NCBI GenBank assembly: GCA_003558335.1
Contig: PWMA01000123.1
Location: 1 to 33,543 of the forward strand
DNA length: 33,543 nt
Reading direction: 5' to 3'
From: Candidatus Methanofastidiosia archaeon
GTDB lineage: Archaea > Methanobacteriota_B > Thermococci > Methanofastidiosales > Methanofastidiosaceae
The stretch's first letter is position 1; each line of letters starts with the position of its first letter. Below the pieces are notes generated by a model, which searched no databases, was not told the DNA's origin, and saw only the letters and a program-made list of their open reading frames with translations. A program made the translations under genes and the position numbers. Shown piece by piece: positions 1 through 10,203 of this stretch.

Positions 1-137
1 TAACAGATCAGCGATAAAGGATATCTCAACATAGTCACAAATTTCAATCCTATAATAGTCTTATTCTAACTCACCTGTGGGTAAACGGGATTCACGATCA
101 TACCAAAATTTCAATCCTATAATAGTCTTATTCTAAC
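1..137 (-). CRISPR. End of a CRISPR array: 30-bp repeat ATTTCAATCCTATAATAGTCTTATTCTAAC at 41-70 and 108-137, partial repeat end (taac) at 1-4; spacers 5-40 (36 bp) and 71-107 (37 bp)
   Basis: Two identical 30-bp repeats with non-identical 36-37 bp spacers, next to cas2. On the minus strand the repeat reads GTTAGAATAAGACTATTATAGGATTGAAAT, ending in the ATTGAAA-type 5' handle common in archaeal type I repeats, so minus-strand transcription is likely. The array continues left of the window. Confidence 0.95.
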
Positions 138-244: not shown

Positions 245-508
245 CTAAAGAATATTTGATGTGTCTGATTTATCAATTCCAATAGTTTCCCTTAATAAGA
301 ACTTATCACTTTTAGATATATAGATAATGACATTATCTTTCTCCTTTTTTATAATGGAATTTAGGCCATTTTTTAATTCACGAAGCTTTGAATCGGTAAT
401 CTCTCCCTCAAATACAGAGTTTTGAACCCAGTTTAGGTGCTGTCTTAAATAGCTCTTTACCTTATTTACTCTTTCAACAGATACATCATAAACAATTATA
501 ACGTACAT
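245..508 (-). CDS. cas2: CRISPR-associated endonuclease Cas2
   Basis: MYVIIVYDVSVERVNKVKSYLRQHLNWVQNSVFEGEIT is a Cas2 signature; start (ATG 508-506) overlaps the cas1 stop. Confidence 0.95.
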   Translation of the reverse strand: MYVIIVYDVSVERVNKVKSYLRQHLNWVQNSVFEGEITDSKLRELKNGLNSIIKKEKDNVIIYISKSDKFLLRETIGIDKSDTSNIL

Positions 509-1482
509 TACCACCAAATCCTAAAAGCTTCGTAGTCCTTTATTCCACTAACATGTTTTATCAATTTATAACATTCTAATCTCATTATATGTTTATAAGA
601 AACTTTCCTACCTAATGTACGATGTTTAATCGTTTTATCTAGACGTTCATTGTAATGCTTTAAAAATAATCTTTTGCCAGGGTCACTGAGGAGACAATAA
701 TTTAAATCTCTATCAAACTCATTTTCAGAAATTATTTTTTTGTTTAAGAGTTTGAATATAACTCGATCGCCAATAAAAGGCTTAAATATTTCACTTAGAT
801 CTAAACTCAAGGAAAATCTTCTTTTAAATGGTTCATGTAGATAAGAAATAGTTGGATTTAATTGAGTATTGTATATCTCCGTTAATATAGTTGCATATAT
901 CAGAGAATTAGAAAAAGAAATTAATGCATTCAACATATTTTTAGGAGGTCTTCTAGATCTTCTGCCAAATTTATATTTTTCCGGAAGTATTTTATCAAAC
1001 GACTGGTAGTAAATATTTCTTATGTTGCCTTCTATACTCATTAATTCACTTATAGAGTTAACACCTTCAATTTTTTCTCCCCAGGATTTTATAGAGTCTA
1101 CTTCTTCAACAAGTTTGTAATATGATAGGTTCTTACTTATGTTAGATATTCCGCCTCTGAGTATCTCTTTTGCAAGAATCATTCTTTTTTCTTTGTCCAA
1201 ATAGTGCTCTGCCTGTCTAACTATTGTCTCACCTGATAAAAGAGATTCTCTTGGATAATAAGTTCCTTCATAATAACCATAATAGTTAAAAAAATGCATG
1301 GGGATTCCTTTCTTCGATAAATATGAAACAACGCCTGAGGTAAAAGTAACTCTGCCGTAACAATAAATCGAAGATATGGTATTAATTGGCAAGATATGCC
1401 TATCTTTTTCAGAATAAAAATATATTGTATTCTCCTTTCGATTAAGAATACCATTTTTTATTAAATAAAAATCTTGTTTCAT
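508..1482 (-). CDS. cas1: CRISPR-associated integrase Cas1
   Basis: FYLIKNGILNRKENTIYFY, SYLHEP and LDLSEIFKPFIGDRVIF motifs typical of Cas1. Start placed at the internal Met (MKQDFYLIKNG), because the longer ORF runs into cas4. Confidence 0.95.
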   Translation of the reverse strand: MKQDFYLIKNGILNRKENTIYFYSEKDRHILPINTISSIYCYGRVTFTSGVVSYLSKKGIPMHFFNYYGYYEGTYYPRESLLSGETIVRQAEHYLDKEKRMILAKEILRGGISNISKNLSYYKLVEEVDSIKSWGEKIEGVNSISELMSIEGNIRNIYYQSFDKILPEKYKFGRRSRRPPKNMLNALISFSNSLIYATILTEIYNTQLNPTISYLHEPFKRRFSLSLDLSEIFKPFIGDRVIFKLLNKKIISENEFDRDLNYCLLSDPGKRLFLKHYNERLDKTIKHRTLGRKVSYKHIMRLECYKLIKHVSGIKDYEAFRIWW

Positions 1483-1486
1483 TTTT

Positions 1487-1978
1487 TTACACCCAGCAAA
1501 AATCGTAATAACTACATTTTTTACAATATGGCTTTTTTTCTGGTTGAGGTATAAGCCCATTAACAATTTCTTGTATATTTTGGAATATATTTTCTAATTC
1601 TTTCTCCCTTTCTTCATTTAGTATTACTTCTTCTGTTTTTTTGATAAGGGGATAATCTAAGATGCCTTTTGCAATGATATCCATTTCTTTTAATCTATAA
1701 AGGTAGAAAAGTAGTTGGTACGTAGATGAAATTTCCATTTTTTTAGACTTCTTTACTTCATATATTACCAAATCATTTTTCTTTTTTATTAGATCGATTT
1801 TCATTCCTGGTAAATTTACTTCTTTTATATTTCTTTGATGAACTGATTCATGTATTATCTTTCCGTCTTTAACAACATCTGACGAATGTTCCATTGTTTG
1901 AAACTTGGAAAAAAGCCAAAGCTTGGTTTTACAAATAAAGTAGTAATTTATTTCTGTGCCTGTTATTATATCGATCAT
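1487..1978 (-). CDS. cas4: CRISPR-associated RecB-family exonuclease Cas4
   Basis: N-terminal Cys, GKIIHESVH, YEVKKSKK and C-terminal CKKCSYYDFC, in cas4-cas1-cas2 order. Confidence 0.92.
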   Translation of the reverse strand: MIDIITGTEINYYFICKTKLWLFSKFQTMEHSSDVVKDGKIIHESVHQRNIKEVNLPGMKIDLIKKKNDLVIYEVKKSKKMEISSTYQLLFYLYRLKEMDIIAKGILDYPLIKKTEEVILNEEREKELENIFQNIQEIVNGLIPQPEKKPYCKKCSYYDFCWV

Positions 1979-1999: not shown

Positions 2000-2572
2000 C
2001 TATATCATCCTTAAATCAAAATTAGAAAACTCAGATTTCAACTTGTTTGTATCGATTCCATCTTTGAATGAATAGTACTCTAAAAATTTATCAGTAGATA
2101 TAATAGCGTTAAACTTTTCATCCAGTTTTACAACTTGATTATACAACATATGATCCAATAATGATATGTCAGTTTGATAAATTTTTATATTGTTAATACC
2201 TGCTACGAATTGATTGTACAAGCTAGTTACCTTTTTCCTGATGTACTTGTCTTCAAATTTATCGGTTGAAGTAAGGACATTTTTCCATAATTCATATATA
2301 CTCTTAGTGTAGACTTTATTTTCTTGTATTATCTCATTTACTACCTCAAATTTCTTGATATTCCCGTCTTCAACAAATGATTTTAGGTAACATCTATCCT
2401 CAGTAGATAGCCATTCTAAAGGTATTTTTTCATCAATAAAAATATCAATTTGTTCTATTTCTTTTTCTATTACGTCAACCATATCGTTTACCGATTTATA
2501 ATGGAGTTGATTTATTTCAGTTATGACTGAATTGTAAGAATCAGACCCTATTTTCTTTACTTCTTTGGCCAG
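2000..2572 (-). pseudogene. cas3: C-terminal part of Cas3, separated from the body by an in-frame TAA (track ORF 2000..2482 plus 30 upstream sense codons)
   Basis: Same frame as cas3. Codons after the TAA (2575-2573) translate without interruption as LAKEVKKIGSDSYNSVITEINQLHYKSVND-MVDVIEKEIEQIDIFI... to the stop at 2000. Confidence 0.8.
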
Positions 2573-4651
2573 TTACCCATAATAATCGTCAAATTTTTTA
2601 TATTTTAAAATCTCATGAAGCTGTACAGGAATATATTTTTTTAGAACTCTATATCTAGAACTTTTTTTTGGAGAGTATATTTTAGTAACATCATAAGTAT
2701 CGCCCTCTTTGTATTTGATTACAAACAGCTTAGAAATGCCTGATTTTTTTGTATTGCACTCCCTATTGATCCTACCAGAAATCTGCTCAAGACTCTCTAA
2801 TATAGAATAGTCTCTAACACCAAAATCACAATCTATATCCATACCTGCCTCTACAGACTGTGTTGAAACTAAGATTGTATTCACATTGGTATTTTTATCC
2901 TTAAACTCTTCAATTATTTTTTTTCTTCGTAAAGTGTGGATAGTTCCATTTAAAAGATAGAACTTAAAATTTTTAAAATAGCTGTCCTCCTTTAGATTAT
3001 CGAAAACTTTTCTTGAAGTCCTAACTGTATTAAAAGTTAGCAATATTTTGACTTTTTTATCCAAATAATTTGTATCTATCTCTTCAATAACTAGTTTTTT
3101 TATACCATCTAAGTCTTTTATGTCATATCTAAAAACTACAGAATTTCTTTCAAGAAGCGGATGATTAAAGTATTTACTTGGATCTTCACATATTTCTGGA
3201 ATTGCCACATTATCTAAAAAATAATTAAAATTGGGCAATGTTGCGCTCATAATTATATAATAGATATTCAAATTTTTACTAGTTTCATTTATAAAATCAT
3301 AAAATACCCTTAAATTCTTATCACTCAAACTTTGTATCTCATCTATTACAACAACACTGTTGCATAGATTTGCTATTTTGTATCTATTATCTCTCTTATT
3401 CTTGATAAATGAATTGAAGAAGTTCACATTGGTAATTATGTTGACGCAGTTATTCAAGAAATTGTCATTTTGAATTATCATTAAATGTTGCAGGCCTGAA
3501 ATTGAATCATTATCTGTTTTAAATTTGTCAAAATAAGCTCTTGAGTAAATATCTGAAACTTTACCAATTTTATTAGAGAACAGAGATGGATCAAAAAAAG
3601 TTTCATTGATCACCTTGCTATTCTGCTCTATTATGTTGATAAATGGAAATACGTAGAATACCCTTTTTACATTATCATCATGTTCTAAAATGTTGAGGGC
3701 CAGTTTCATCGATATGTTTGTTTTGCCCCCTCCTGTAGGTACAGCTAACATAAATATTTTATTGTTTTCATTCAACAATTTTTTTATTCGATTGTTACAT
3801 TCAATCAATATTTCGCTGCGTAAATCATTGATGTTTTTTATTTCCGAGAGAATCTTTAACCCCCTTCTACCTATATCTTTATTGTACTCTATTCTAGAAA
3901 ACGATTGTACCATTTTTTTTCTAGTTTCAGTATCTATCATATTCAAATTATAAAACTCATTCAAATTATTTGTATAATGAAAGGTAGAATATGAGTCACT
4001 CATAACAAGCAACGAATAAATTAGTTTCACAAGTAAAAATAATCTTTTCCAATCGAAATTAGGATTGTCCCAGAATTCCAACATAGTTTTTTGATCTATG
4101 GTAGCATTGCCAATATTTGTCACACTAAAAATCTTTTCAGTTATTTCTTTTTCTATTTGATCTTCTTCTTTAATTTTTCCATTAAAGTCTCCCAAGGGGC
4201 TATGGTGAAAATTTACAGCGGTAGAAAATAAATGAACTACATAATCCAATCTTGGAAACTTTTTAATCAAAAACGATGTCAGAACCTTTGAAGAATAATA
4301 ACTGTGTCTTTTATCTCCAGAAACATCAATATTTTCAACATTTGCTTTTTGAAAATTTGGATTTATTTTGCCTATGTCGTGATAATGTACAATATATGAA
4401 ATTATTTCCTTGACAGTATCTGTATTTTTATCAGTAAATATATTGGATATCATATCATCTATTATAGATTCCAATTGCAATTTTTCAATTAGATATACAA
4501 AATATTTAGAACATAAAAATGAGTGATCTTCTAAAGATTCAAGAGAGTTTTCATAAATATCTTTTTTTTTATGGGCCGACCCGTAGATTTTAGAGGGTAT
4601 CAACGAATAATCAAGTGATTCAACTATTTGTTTAAATGTCTTAAAAAACAT
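2573..4651 (-). CDS. cas3: CRISPR-associated HD nuclease/helicase Cas3, ending early at TAA 2575-2573
   Basis: HD motif (HYHDIGKINPNFQ), Walker A AVPTGGGKTN, VVVIDEIQ, SATLP, QSVEAGMDIDCDF and QISGRINRE. Start placed at internal Met MFFKTFKQIVE. Confidence 0.93.
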   Translation of the reverse strand: MFFKTFKQIVESLDYSLIPSKIYGSAHKKKDIYENSLESLEDHSFLCSKYFVYLIEKLQLESIIDDMISNIFTDKNTDTVKEIISYIVHYHDIGKINPNFQKANVENIDVSGDKRHSYYSSKVLTSFLIKKFPRLDYVVHLFSTAVNFHHSPLGDFNGKIKEEDQIEKEITEKIFSVTNIGNATIDQKTMLEFWDNPNFDWKRLFLLVKLIYSLLVMSDSYSTFHYTNNLNEFYNLNMIDTETRKKMVQSFSRIEYNKDIGRRGLKILSEIKNINDLRSEILIECNNRIKKLLNENNKIFMLAVPTGGGKTNISMKLALNILEHDDNVKRVFYVFPFINIIEQNSKVINETFFDPSLFSNKIGKVSDIYSRAYFDKFKTDNDSISGLQHLMIIQNDNFLNNCVNIITNVNFFNSFIKNKRDNRYKIANLCNSVVVIDEIQSLSDKNLRVFYDFINETSKNLNIYYIIMSATLPNFNYFLDNVAIPEICEDPSKYFNHPLLERNSVVFRYDIKDLDGIKKLVIEEIDTNYLDKKVKILLTFNTVRTSRKVFDNLKEDSYFKNFKFYLLNGTIHTLRRKKIIEEFKDKNTNVNTILVSTQSVEAGMDIDCDFGVRDYSILESLEQISGRINRECNTKKSGISKLFVIKYKEGDTYDVTKIYSPKKSSRYRVLKKYIPVQLHEILKYKKFDDYYG

Positions 4652-5348
4652 AGTAGGCTCTATCCCCAGAAAAGATGAATTCGTCAACGTTATTAACGTT
4701 TATTTTTACCTCGTTTTCAGGTATTGCCATCAAACGGTAGGTATATTTAAAGTTTTCATCAAAACCTGAAGGAATCATCTCCAATTTAAAGTTTGTTTTA
4801 TTTTTATCTGAGATTAAATCAAATGGCATTATACTATGGCAATTTACAAAAGTTTCAGAACTTTTAGTTAAATCTTCTAAAGCTATATATTCTATATTTG
4901 CAGGGAACTCATTTTTTCCAAAGTATGGATTAAAAACAGATTTATTGTTCATTATATTTTCTATTATTTTTTTATGATTCTCGTTTTTCTCATTTAAAAC
5001 TAATCCAATCTCATAATCTGGATTCATTAATACTTGTTCCTTGACTATAACGTTTGGAGAAGGTGAATCTTTTCTGTTATTTAAAAAGCTATTTAGGCTA
5101 TTGTATGTGACAATGAATTTGCTATCTTTTTTATTTTTAGGCATTATAAAAATTTTTATATCGCTCAATTTTTCATAATATTCAGGGACTGTATCACTGC
5201 CCGAATAACCTTTAAGTCCAATTATGGCCCCAATGATACCCAGTAAGTGTGGTTTAGATATAATAGAATATGTGTTTTTAAACAGATTGCTTGAAGATTG
5301 ATTGAAGTGTGCAAAATTCCCATACAACCTAAACTTTAACAGTTTCAT
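4641..5348 (-). CDS. cas5: CRISPR-associated protein Cas5 (type I-B)
   Basis: MKLLKFRLYGNFAHFN...SKPHLLGIIGAIIGLKGY is a Cas5 N-terminus; position between cas7 and cas3. Confidence 0.9.
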   Translation of the reverse strand: MKLLKFRLYGNFAHFNQSSSNLFKNTYSIISKPHLLGIIGAIIGLKGYSGSDTVPEYYEKLSDIKIFIMPKNKKDSKFIVTYNSLNSFLNNRKDSPSPNVIVKEQVLMNPDYEIGLVLNEKNENHKKIIENIMNNKSVFNPYFGKNEFPANIEYIALEDLTKSSETFVNCHSIMPFDLISDKNKTNFKLEMIPSGFDENFKYTYRLMAIPENEVKINVNNVDEFIFSGDRAYYVF

Positions 5349-5392: not shown

Positions 5393-6238
5393 TTAATCAA
5401 CACCTCTATTAACTACCTTGCAGTAATGATTTTCTTTGATCTTTACGTCATTCTTAATTAGATTCATTACTTTAGAGTAGTCAACAATTATTTCATTGTT
5501 CTCTTCAAAGATATCCACTAATGAGTTTAGATTATTGAATATTTTGTCTTTTTTGTTTTCTAACCAAATAAAACTCACAGTTTCAACGCCGAACATAGTT
5601 GTAGAAACAACCTCGCCCACAGAGTATTTCAATGCCTCAGTTAATTTAGTGATATCTGTATCTGTTATCTTTATACCTTGTTTCTCTGCAGAGTTCATAT
5701 TCAAGCAAATATCGTAAACATAGTAAACATCGTCCGCCCTAGATTCTTCGCCTATTGTAGTTTGTTGAGCATCTTGAGTTTTTTCACTTGGATTTCTGTA
5801 AGGAGACAGTATACTTGAAACATAAATATTGGATTTTTCATACTTGTTTATTCCATAACTTATTTGACAGGGGCCTGTAAGGGATATGTTACTGTCCACT
5901 GCAAAAACTACTCCAAAAAGTCGAACGTCTATGAAATTTAAAAGATTGTCAAGTATTTCTTTTTCATCTTTGGGTAATTTATCAACTTTACATTTCTTCA
6001 AATAGTTTTCTTTTAATGTGAGATATCTTTGTTTTAAATTTCCATCTTTTTCATGAAACTCTTTATCCCTTTGGACAAAAACAGACTCTGTTTTTGAGAG
6101 ATATTCTCTAATACAGTATTTAAGGGCTTTGTCTGTTGCAAATATCTTGCCATCTGGCAATCTTCTGGGAAGCCCGTCAAAGCTAGCATTGAAATTTGCG
6201 TTCTTTGCATTTATTACTACAATTCCATTATAATTCAT
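5393..6238 (-). CDS. cas7: CRISPR-associated Cas7 backbone protein (type I-B, Csh2-like)
   Basis: GIVVINAKNANFNASFDGLPRRLPDGKIFATDKALKYCIREYL and VRLFGVVFAVD...LTGPCQISYG. Confidence 0.9.
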   Translation of the reverse strand: MNYNGIVVINAKNANFNASFDGLPRRLPDGKIFATDKALKYCIREYLSKTESVFVQRDKEFHEKDGNLKQRYLTLKENYLKKCKVDKLPKDEKEILDNLLNFIDVRLFGVVFAVDSNISLTGPCQISYGINKYEKSNIYVSSILSPYRNPSEKTQDAQQTTIGEESRADDVYYVYDICLNMNSAEKQGIKITDTDITKLTEALKYSVGEVVSTTMFGVETVSFIWLENKKDKIFNNLNSLVDIFEENNEIIVDYSKVMNLIKNDVKIKENHYCKVVNRGVD

Positions 6239-8146
6239 TTATTCCACTTCCTTGTTTTCTTCTTCTAATATTTTTATTTCTTTTTTAGATCCGTATAAAT
6301 AATTTTTATCAAAATATCCCGTATAAAGAGGGATTTTGTTGTTCTCATAAGAGTCCAAAAATTCATAAGCCAAAACACTCTTCATAACAGTTTGAAATTT
6401 GGGATTTCTATCTATATACTCATTATATGAGTATTTTTCAAGGACGTCTAATAATCTCTTTTTTAAGTATTCCATATTATGCACATTCAAGGTATATTTT
6501 GTAAAAAGATCCAGCCTATTTTTTATTGATTCACTGTAACCTAGCAAATAACGAAACAGTTGGCCCATTAGATAGCTAGCTTCGAAATCATTTTCTATAT
6601 TTATTTTCTCTATATCTTTCAATTTTTTTTCTAATATTTTATACTTATCCAAATATATTCCTCCATTTGGTTCATTGTGTAAATATTTGTAATAAACAAT
6701 TAAAAATTGTCTAATCTTGTTACTGCCAAGTTTCATTTCATCTCTTAAATTAATATTTCTAACCATTTCATATAATAATTCCGTAAACATCTTTGAATAA
6801 TTGTTATCAATAAAAAGAGAACTGTCTTGATAAAAAATATAATTTCTAATTATGAAATTGTATTCTAGAATTTTTTGTTGGATAAAAGGATGAACTTTTA
6901 TTAAATTCTTTTTATCCGTTTCAAATAGAGAAGGAGCAAGTGTATTATTGAAAAGATAGTTTAAATCTGCTAAAAAAACTGATTTATTCTTTTCATTTGT
7001 TATTGTATAACTTTGACTGGTATTTGAGTTATGAAACCTGTAGTATAATGAAATGTTTTTTATATTTGTTGGAGCATTTGGACACTCCATCTCATAATTA
7101 AAATTAGAAACATATCTAAATTCTATATTATCTAAGCTAGGGCCTGTTAAGATCATTACATAGTCAAATTCTTTAAAATTATTTTTTTCATAAAGCTTTT
7201 TTAATATCTTCAAAATTCCGGGAGGGTCGCTTGCGTAGTTTTTATAATCTTTTTGATTAAATAAATCTTGCCTGGTAGGAAAGACATAACGGTAAAATTT
7301 GTATGATTTTAAATATTCAAAGAAATAATACAGTTGCATGGAGCATTCTCTACAAATATTATAATTTTCAGAACTCTTTGACCTCAAATTAGTTTTGTAT
7401 CTTGTTGGATTTCTTAATAAGTATTTTCTTTCCTTCCCAACGTCAAAGGTATTGCCATGAGTAAGGACATATAACTGATCATTTTTTTTACAGGCATTAC
7501 ATTCTCCTACATATGAGTCATACTTTAGTATTTTATCATTTACATATTCTTTAAATAATTCTAAGTATTGGCAAATATTATCCCCATCTACTAAAAAAAC
7601 GATATAATCATTTTTATTTAAATCGTATTCTTCATTGGAAAAATCTTCAAAGAAGGATACAACATATTCTATTAGTTCTGGAAATTTTCTGTAATACTCA
7701 GTCTCTACACTGCGTTTTTTAAATTCTACAATTTTTTTAGAAGGAAATTCTATAGTTGTAACTTTTTGATTAGATTCATTTGATATTTTTTCATTGACAA
7801 AAGCATCGGTAATCTTAAAGTGAGTAGGGCTATGACTCATTAATGCATTACTACCGCCAATATTATTAGAATTGTTATGAGTAGGATTAATAAATTTTTC
7901 AGGTGTTAATAATTGCAATAGTTCTTCTCTTTTTGGATAGTTAGATAAAAAATCAATATCATCGATAGACTCTGTTATTGATTCGTAAACTAAACATACA
8001 GGTTTAATTTTCAAATATTTTTCATTATAACTGGGGGGCACAATTAGAATTTTATTATTTCTACGTTTTCCGTTTTGAGATTTATCCAGCAATACTGAAT
8101 AATCTTCTTCTGAAAATAAGTTTATAATAAAGTTATACATTTGCAC
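6239..8146 (-). CDS. cas8b: CRISPR-associated Cas8b large subunit (Csh1-like)
   Basis: Large subunit with CxxC pairs (ECNACKK, NICRECS) in operon position between cas6 and cas7. Confidence 0.85.
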   Translation of the reverse strand: MQMYNFIINLFSEEDYSVLLDKSQNGKRRNNKILIVPPSYNEKYLKIKPVCLVYESITESIDDIDFLSNYPKREELLQLLTPEKFINPTHNNSNNIGGSNALMSHSPTHFKITDAFVNEKISNESNQKVTTIEFPSKKIVEFKKRSVETEYYRKFPELIEYVVSFFEDFSNEEYDLNKNDYIVFLVDGDNICQYLELFKEYVNDKILKYDSYVGECNACKKNDQLYVLTHGNTFDVGKERKYLLRNPTRYKTNLRSKSSENYNICRECSMQLYYFFEYLKSYKFYRYVFPTRQDLFNQKDYKNYASDPPGILKILKKLYEKNNFKEFDYVMILTGPSLDNIEFRYVSNFNYEMECPNAPTNIKNISLYYRFHNSNTSQSYTITNEKNKSVFLADLNYLFNNTLAPSLFETDKKNLIKVHPFIQQKILEYNFIIRNYIFYQDSSLFIDNNYSKMFTELLYEMVRNINLRDEMKLGSNKIRQFLIVYYKYLHNEPNGGIYLDKYKILEKKLKDIEKINIENDFEASYLMGQLFRYLLGYSESIKNRLDLFTKYTLNVHNMEYLKKRLLDVLEKYSYNEYIDRNPKFQTVMKSVLAYEFLDSYENNKIPLYTGYFDKNYLYGSKKEIKILEEENKEVE

Positions 8147-8183: not shown

Positions 8184-8912
8184 TCACCCGTTATCACCAT
8201 CATCAATGACTTTAACCATACCAAATCCCATAGAATTTTTTTCACCAAAACCTGCATCATATCCTAACTTTATCAGATCGGGAGTTCCATAAACATTAAA
8301 TTCGATATAGTGTGCTGTATGAAAAGTATTCTTTATTTTTCTTTTTGTACTTCTCAGTATACCTGCTATATCAAAATTCACTTTACAGTTTTCAATCTCC
8401 TTGCCATAATATAGAGAGTATTTCTTTATAAGATTTCTTTCTAGATTCTTGTAGAATTTTAAATCAGTTGGAGAAAGATCCCACGTCTTTAGTTTACCGT
8501 CCATATTTAGTTTTGTAGTAATACATATTGGGGATATTGTTCTAAATCTTATGGAATCATCGATTTCAATGTCTTTCAATAGTTCAACTGATTCTAAATT
8601 TAAGGGCACTCCAGCAATATGAAATGAAGAGTTTTGGAATAAGCCCTCGACAAAAGGAATAGAAATATCTTTTCTCGGGGATGAAAAGAAAAAGAAACAA
8701 TTGTCTTTAATCAAAAGTCCTCTTTCGCCCATAGGGATAACTCCCTTTAAATCAGAAAATGTGAATAGTTTTATGTCTTTAGAATAATGAAGATACTCAG
8801 AGATATTGCTATCTGCACTTTGTATCGATGAGTAAATGAAAGAACCAATATAATAGTTGTAATTGTAAGGTATGAAGCTTTCTTTTGCTGAAAAGGTCAG
8901 TTTAAATCTCAT
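8184..8912 (-). CDS. cas6: CRISPR RNA endonuclease Cas6
   Basis: C-terminal G-rich motif DAGFGEKNSMGFGMVKV; first gene of the cas operon. Confidence 0.9.
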   Translation of the reverse strand: MRFKLTFSAKESFIPYNYNYYIGSFIYSSIQSADSNISEYLHYSKDIKLFTFSDLKGVIPMGERGLLIKDNCFFFFSSPRKDISIPFVEGLFQNSSFHIAGVPLNLESVELLKDIEIDDSIRFRTISPICITTKLNMDGKLKTWDLSPTDLKFYKNLERNLIKKYSLYYGKEIENCKVNFDIAGILRSTKRKIKNTFHTAHYIEFNVYGTPDLIKLGYDAGFGEKNSMGFGMVKVIDDGDNG

Positions 8913-9201: not shown

Positions 9202-10203
9202 ATGCTAACAACAGAAGCTGTCAGAAGGCGTATCCGAGAAGTAAAAGAATTCCTACCCTCTGAAAATAAAATCAAATCATCAGCATACAGAAACTGGCCC
9301 GAGTATGAGAAGGAGCTATCTAGCAGCATCCGAGCTGCATTCAGGAACATAAGCCCACTAGTCGATGAGGCAGTTTCTAGCATACAAGTAAGTAAAGGTA
9401 GAGGATCTCCCCGTAAACTTACCTTGAAACAAAGAGTGACACTTCTTCTAATAAAAGAGCTTGTCGGCCACAGCAACAGGATGATGGCCAATATGCTCGT
9501 TGTTTTTTCAATGCTAAATGACATAGATGTCAGTTACAAAACAATAGAAAGGCTGTATTCCGATCCAGAGGTAGCGCTTGCCATCCATAATCTTCACGTT
9601 GTGATACTGAAAAAGAAGGGAATAAAGTATGCCGACACATCTGGAGATGGAACAGGCTATTCCCTCACAATATCCAAACACTACTCTTCAGCGGTCCAGA
9701 AAAGGCGTGACAAGGTGAAAGAAGTTAAATATGGGGAAAATCAGCTTCGAAGAGAATATGTCTATAAGTTCGCACTTCTCGATCTAAACACTTTCATGTA
9801 TATTGCATACGGAGCAAGCCTGAAAAGTGAGAAAGAAGCCTTTGAAAAGTCGATGGAAATGCTAGAGTCTCTTGATATAAAAGTAAAAAGCATTCGTCTT
9901 TACAAATATTACAGCTACCCATTCTACGTGAACAAGTTTCAAGATTCCAAGGTCTACATAATACCCAAGTCTAACTGCACAATCAAAGGGTCGCAAAAAT
10001 GGAAGAGCACTTTGAAAGAGTTTCTAAACGATACGGAAAGTTACCTGCAAGAATACTACAGAAGAGAAAGCTCTGAAGCAGCTTTTTCTGCAGACAAGAG
10101 ACGCTTTGGCTGGACAATAGAGCAGAGGCTCGCAGGAAGGATATACTGTGCCGCCTCCTGCATTGCGCTCTGGCACAATCTTTTGAATCTAAATACAGGC
10201 TAA
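9202..10203 (+). CDS. DDE-type transposase
   Basis: Spans most of the TIR-bounded element; DTSGDGTG and RRESSEAAFSADKRRFGW motifs; stop codon TAA is the first triplet of the right TIR. Confidence 0.9.
   Translation: MLTTEAVRRRIREVKEFLPSENKIKSSAYRNWPEYEKELSSSIRAAFRNISPLVDEAVSSIQVSKGRGSPRKLTLKQRVTLLLIKELVGHSNRMMANMLVVFSMLNDIDVSYKTIERLYSDPEVALAIHNLHVVILKKKGIKYADTSGDGTGYSLTISKHYSSAVQKRRDKVKEVKYGENQLRREYVYKFALLDLNTFMYIAYGASLKSEKEAFEKSMEMLESLDIKVKSIRLYKYYSYPFYVNKFQDSKVYIIPKSNCTIKGSQKWKSTLKEFLNDTESYLQEYYRRESSEAAFSADKRRFGWTIEQRLAGRIYCAASCIALWHNLLNLNTG

What the first reader, a model, noticed from the sequence alone, without database searches (positions are those of the whole stretch)
2000..4651. cas3 is split by one in-frame TAA; the '160-aa ORF' is its C-terminal domain
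The ORF track shows Cas3 (2573..4687) and an apparently unknown 160-aa gene (2000..2482). Both are in the same minus-strand frame. The 30 codons between the TAA (2575-2573) and the downstream ATG are all sense codons. The joined product is a normal-looking Cas3 with HD, helicase and C-terminal region. HD and helicase motifs all lie before the stop. The locus therefore either makes a truncated or two-part Cas3, reads through TAA, is recently inactivated for interference, or contains a sequencing error. Acquisition genes and leader-end repeats look intact.
Basis: seen in the sequence. Interest (0 to 1): 0.65.

Follow-up and report, generated by a model that had tools for sequence, protein, structure and literature searches.

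The report
CRISPR cas3 gene with premature stop
In this draft archaeal genome the gene for the CRISPR DNA-shredding enzyme Cas3 is cut by one early stop signal, so the neighbouring "unknown small gene" is just the tail of Cas3; this is an ordinary recent gene break or a sequence error rather than a new system.

Summary
On the minus strand, TAA at 2575-2573 interrupts one reading frame that otherwise runs from ATG 4651 to the TAG at 2002-2000. The nearest relative (G001, same genus) has the same operon, cas6-cas8-cas7-cas5-cas3-cas4-cas1-cas2-array. Its cas3 is one uninterrupted 883-aa gene, 73% identical, with no gap. One PADLOC Cas3b profile of 844 positions matches the 692 residues before the stop at positions 19-667. 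The 190 residues after it, searched alone, match at 671-838 (E 1.8e-29). Ten further intact Cas3 homologues (799-852 aa) all continue past this point. The 160-aa ORF is therefore the Cas3 C-terminal domain. No strong ribosome-binding site precedes its ATG. TAA is an ordinary stop in this window, and no TAA-reading tRNA was seen. The tail still looks constrained (dN/dS 0.155), so the stop is recent, still segregating, or a consensus error in a 182-contig draft. If real, it should remove the CTD and weaken or abolish interference while leaving Cascade and acquisition genes intact. cas3 pseudogenes beside intact cas genes are already known (PMC2886076). Interest is low.

The parts
2573..4651 (-). 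5' part of cas3 (692 aa before the stop): HD nuclease and RecA1/RecA2 helicase domains
   Evidence: PADLOC PDLC01764 Cas3b profile 19-667 of 844; TIGR01587 and TIGR01596 above cut-off; start inferred from overlap with cas5 and from G001
2573..2575 (-). premature in-frame TAA at the junction of helicase and C-terminal domain
   Evidence: sense codon at this position in G001
2003..2572 (-). 3' part of cas3 (190 codons), the C-terminal domain, out of reach of normal translation
   Evidence: PDLC01764 positions 671-838, E 1.8e-29; 67% identical to G001 with no gap
2000..2482 (-). the apparent 160-aa ORF (stop included): begins at an internal Met of cas3, not an independent gene
   Evidence: same Met inside the intact G001 cas3; weak ribosome-binding site, dG -3.1
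1487..1978 (-). cas4, intact
   Evidence: PF01930 E 6.6e-55; 82% identical to G001, pN/pS 0.15
508..1482 (-). cas1 (type I-B), intact
   Evidence: TIGR03641 464 bits, cut-off 304; only Cas1 in the genome
245..517 (-). cas2, intact
   Evidence: PF09827 E 2.4e-21
4641..5348 (-). cas5b, intact
   Evidence: TIGR02592 105.9 bits, cut-off 97
5393..6238 (-). cas7b, intact
   Evidence: PF05107 E 5.2e-32
6239..8146 (-). cas8b, intact but divergent
   Evidence: PADLOC Cas8b E 7.5e-14; no Pfam match
8184..8912 (-). cas6, intact
   Evidence: TIGR01877 144.7 bits, cut-off 58.65
39..137 (-). leader-proximal end of the CRISPR array, two identical repeats at 39-70 and 106-137; the array continues off the contig
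   Evidence: three more copies at the start of contig C157

Best explanation
This is one type I-B cas3 gene carrying a recent premature TAA, either fixed in this strain or segregating in its population, exactly between the helicase and the C-terminal domain. Shown: the frame, the stop, the homology of both halves to one Cas3, and constraint on both halves. Inferred: ordinary translation ends at the stop and gives a 692-aa HD-helicase protein without its C-terminal domain. Because that domain is reported to contact Cascade and to close the ssDNA channel, target degradation is probably weakened or lost. Cascade, crRNA processing and the Cas4-Cas1-Cas2 acquisition genes remain encoded.
For: One profile matches both halves contiguously, 19-667 and 671-838 of 844. 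G001 has the gene uninterrupted in a syntenic operon. Ten other homologues of 799-852 aa are uninterrupted. dN/dS is 0.155 (95% 0.065-0.259) after the stop against 0.108 (0.074-0.148) before it, with no gap and no second stop in 190 codons, so the stop is young. TAA terminates 14 of 29 genes checked in the window. No other Cas3, Cas1 or Cas10 palm-domain match was found in the genome. CTD roles are described in PMC5965380 and PMC11417383. cas3 pseudogenes beside otherwise intact cas genes are known in Salmonella (PMC2886076).
Against: No reads and no second genome of this species were available, so a consensus error is not excluded. Constraint on the tail would also be seen if the tail were still translated. 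The effect of CTD loss on a type I-B Cas3 was not tested here, and the literature calls the exact function of this domain unclear (PMC7074321).
Confidence: 0.6

Rival explanations
1. The TAA is a consensus or assembly error in a draft genome, and the organism has an intact full-length cas3.
For: The genome is a draft of 182 contigs. The rest of the operon is intact and constrained, and cas3 shows no second lesion. Purifying selection on the tail is just what an unbroken gene would show.
Against: The break is a substitution, not a homopolymer indel. No other interrupted gene was seen among about 29 in the window. The codon next to the stop also differs strongly from G001: five of six bases over the two codons differ, against about 23% per site upstream (from the counts), which favours a real local change, although this was noticed after the fact.
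Confidence: 0.3
2. A functional two-part Cas3: the 692-aa HD-helicase and the separately translated C-terminal piece (160 aa from ATG 2482) assemble in trans.
For: The tail is still constrained and in frame and has an ATG. Some type I systems do encode the HD nuclease separately from the helicase (PMC5965380).
Against: The predicted ribosome-binding site before ATG 2482 is weak (dG -3.1; random positions have median -1.1 and 5th percentile -6.3), and no better candidate lies in the preceding 30 codons. The Met is an internal residue shared with intact G001. A start there leaves 30 conserved codons untranslated (83% identical to G001). No relative examined has a separate CTD gene.
Confidence: 0.06
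3. The TAA is read through, by suppression or recoding, giving full-length Cas3.
For: The downstream frame is conserved and in frame.
Against: TAA is the commonest terminator in the window, 14 of 29. No tRNA with a UUA anticodon appears among those read, though one partial tRNA at a contig edge was not read and a few expected tRNAs were not identified. The intact relative shows the stop is not a conserved signal.
Confidence: 0.03

Closest known systems
Type I-B Cas3 of the same-genus genome G001 (contig C3, 2556-5204)
   Same: Same operon order, same 30-nt repeat, 73% identity over all 883 residues without a gap
   Different: No internal stop
PADLOC Cas3b profile PDLC01764 and plasmid-borne I-B Cas3 of Sulfurospirillum sp. 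SP, Arcobacter cloacae and Fusobacteria bacterium ZRK30
   Same: HD, helicase and C-terminal regions in the same order; in Sulfurospirillum the same gene order cas6 through cas2
   Different: Single uninterrupted ORFs of 799-829 aa, about 30% identical before the break position
cas3 pseudogenes beside intact cas genes in Salmonella and Escherichia (Touchon and Rocha 2010, PMC2886076)
   Same: cas3 broken while other cas genes look intact
   Different: Another CRISPR subtype (E. coli subtype) rather than I-B; there seen in several sequenced isolates, here in a single draft genome

Membership tests
Type I-B Cas3 (HD-helicase fusion) | N-terminal HD nuclease domain with its histidine/aspartate motifs | tested here: met
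   TIGR01596 66.6 bits, cut-off 43.45; PF18019 26 bits, cut-off 23.1
Type I-B Cas3 (HD-helicase fusion) | SF2 helicase core: Walker A, DExx box, SAT, motif VI | tested here: met
   TIGR01587 137.5 bits, cut-off 102.45; motifs in the translation
Type I-B Cas3 (HD-helicase fusion) | C-terminal domain continuous with the helicase in one open frame | tested here: not met
   The domain is encoded (PDLC01764 671-838, E 1.8e-29) but lies behind an in-frame TAA. The locus belongs to the Cas3b gene family; the predicted product is truncated.
Type I-B CRISPR-Cas operon | cas6, cas8b, cas7, cas5, cas3, cas4, cas1, cas2 and a CRISPR array | tested here: met
   Cas1 and Cas5 match I-B models above cut-off. 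Cas7 matches I-B/I-C models below the NCBIfam cut-offs, and Cas8b is divergent.
Independent small cas gene (160-aa family) | occurs as a separate gene in relatives | tested here: not met
   In G001 it is the end of cas3. In Sulfurospirillum cas4 follows cas3 directly, and no comparable gene is annotated behind cas3 in the other plasmid loci.
Inactivated cas3 (pseudogene) | stop verified in reads and loss of interference shown | not testable with these tools
   no reads, culture or assay available

The most novel reading that the evidence does not exclude
A natural two-part type I-B Cas3, in which the HD-helicase and the C-terminal domain are made as separate chains and work together, or in which controlled read-through of the TAA sets the amount of full-length Cas3.
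Probability: 0.06. Interest if true: 0.55.

Novelty: new member of a known kind. Interest (0 to 1): 0.18.

Why it matters
It corrects an annotation: the apparent unknown 160-aa gene is the Cas3 C-terminal domain and should not be counted as a new cas gene. If the stop is real, the locus is a natural case in which interference is probably lost while the acquisition genes stay intact, one more example of the decay of CRISPR immunity. Neither point is surprising.

Tried and rejected
Scans of genome contigs and viral contigs found no relatives; useful homologues came from the genome search and the plasmid collection. A single-sequence AlphaFold model of the read-through protein was useless (mean pLDDT 34), so no fold search was made. 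The PDB profile search matched only the HD and helicase parts. Pfam and NCBIfam gave no convincing match for the tail; PADLOC did. A profile of the ten distant Cas3 proteins alone scores the tail at only 10.1 bits against a maximum of 4.3 for shuffled tails: supportive but weak. An amino-acid relative-rate count gave no sign of faster change of the tail on this lineage (15 against 9 downstream, 59 against 53 upstream, Fisher p 0.50), with little power. Considered and rejected: general TAA reassignment, an independent 160-aa gene family, and a naturally short Cas3. Paper searches for split or truncated Cas3 found nothing on type I-B archaeal cases in the titles and abstracts listed.

Full report
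Observation. The minus strand of 4651-2000 is one reading frame of 883 codons plus a terminal TAG, interrupted once by TAA at 2575-2573. The 30 codons between the stop and ATG 2482 are all sense. The best start for cas3 is ATG 4651, overlapping the end of cas5, as in the relative G001. The ORF list's TTG 4687 is only the first possible start. The predicted product is 692 aa and lacks the last 190 residues, 21.5% of the joined protein.

What the two pieces are. The piece before the stop is a Cas3 with HD and helicase domains. The piece after it has no convincing Pfam or NCBIfam match, which explains why it looks unknown. A PADLOC Cas3b profile (PDLC01764, 844 positions) decides the matter: the first piece covers 19-667 and the second, searched alone, covers 671-838 with E 1.8e-29. 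The joined protein scores 854 bits against 740 for the first piece alone. The two matches are only three profile positions apart, so no segment of the family is missing at the break.

Relatives. Among 61 genomes searched (the window's own and 60 relatives), the only close relative of this Cas3 is in G001, same genus, 73% identical over the whole length, with no stop and no gap. Its operon has the same order and the same 30-nt repeat. More distant same-genus Cas3 proteins (G002, G004, G007; 804 aa), one from the same class (G107; 833 aa) and six plasmid-borne homologues (799-852 aa) are all uninterrupted and continue through the break position into a C-terminal region with shared positions, such as an invariant I728 and a W789 found in 10 of 12. 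In Sulfurospirillum cas4 directly follows cas3, and none of the other annotated plasmid loci shows a comparable gene behind cas3.

Age of the stop. Between this genome and G001, dN/dS is 0.155 (95% 0.065-0.259) after the stop and 0.108 (0.074-0.148) before it; the HD domain alone is 0.175. The tail has no indel and no second stop. A long neutral period would have raised dN/dS and added lesions, so the stop is recent, or segregating, or not real, or the tail is still made. The other cas genes have pN/pS of 0.11-0.26 and are intact.

Could the tail still be made? The context of ATG 2482 gives a weak predicted pairing with the 16S tail (dG -3.1; random positions have median -1.1 and 5th percentile -6.3), and no better start lies between it and the stop. 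Some genes of this window, including cas4, also lack a good site, so this is weak evidence. The Met is an ordinary internal residue shared with G001. Read-through lacks support: TAA ends 14 of 29 genes checked, and none of the tRNAs read has a UUA anticodon, although one partial tRNA was not read and a few expected ones were not identified.

Consequence. The genome has one Cas1, one Cas3-like match and no Cas10 palm-domain match, so a backup interference enzyme was not found in this draft. Reviews and structures describe the Cas3 CTD as closing the ssDNA channel and contacting Cascade (PMC5965380), and point mutations in it impair type I-C Cas3 nuclease activity (PMC11417383); its exact function is still called unclear (PMC7074321). 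A truncated protein would probably interfere poorly or not at all. This is inference.

Real or error. The genome is a draft in 182 contigs and no reads were available. The change is a substitution rather than an indel, the adjoining codon also differs from G001, and no other gene of the window looks interrupted; these lean towards a real change. A consensus error remains at about 0.3.

Organism. The tools give only kinship labels. The class holds many complete genomes of about 1.7-2.2 Mb, and the window is 32.5% G+C; an archaeon of the Methanofastidiosum kind would fit, but this is a guess from general knowledge and was not tested.

Verdict. It is a new instance of a known kind, a broken cas3 next to intact cas genes (PMC2886076), or an error. 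It is not a new gene or mechanism.

Noticed in passing
window 9202-10203 (+): A 333-aa ORF next to cas6 without a Pfam match, present in several copies and fragments in same-genus genomes (75-89% identical, one copy with an internal TAA): probably a transposase of an insertion element. The transposase label is my reading of its distribution, not tested.
   Followed up: partly
window 1-137 and G000 contig C157 40-201 (L029): The CRISPR array is broken by the assembly: two repeats end this contig and three identical repeats stand at the start of C157, which probably holds the far end of the array.
   Followed up: partly
L030 (G007:C9:17223-17252): A lone, exact copy of the same 30-nt repeat on the contig of a same-genus genome whose Cas3 is only 29% identical to this one.
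   Followed up: partly
window 6239-8146 (-): The Cas8b is very divergent: no Pfam or NCBIfam match, only a PADLOC Cas8b match at 7.5e-14.
   Followed up: no
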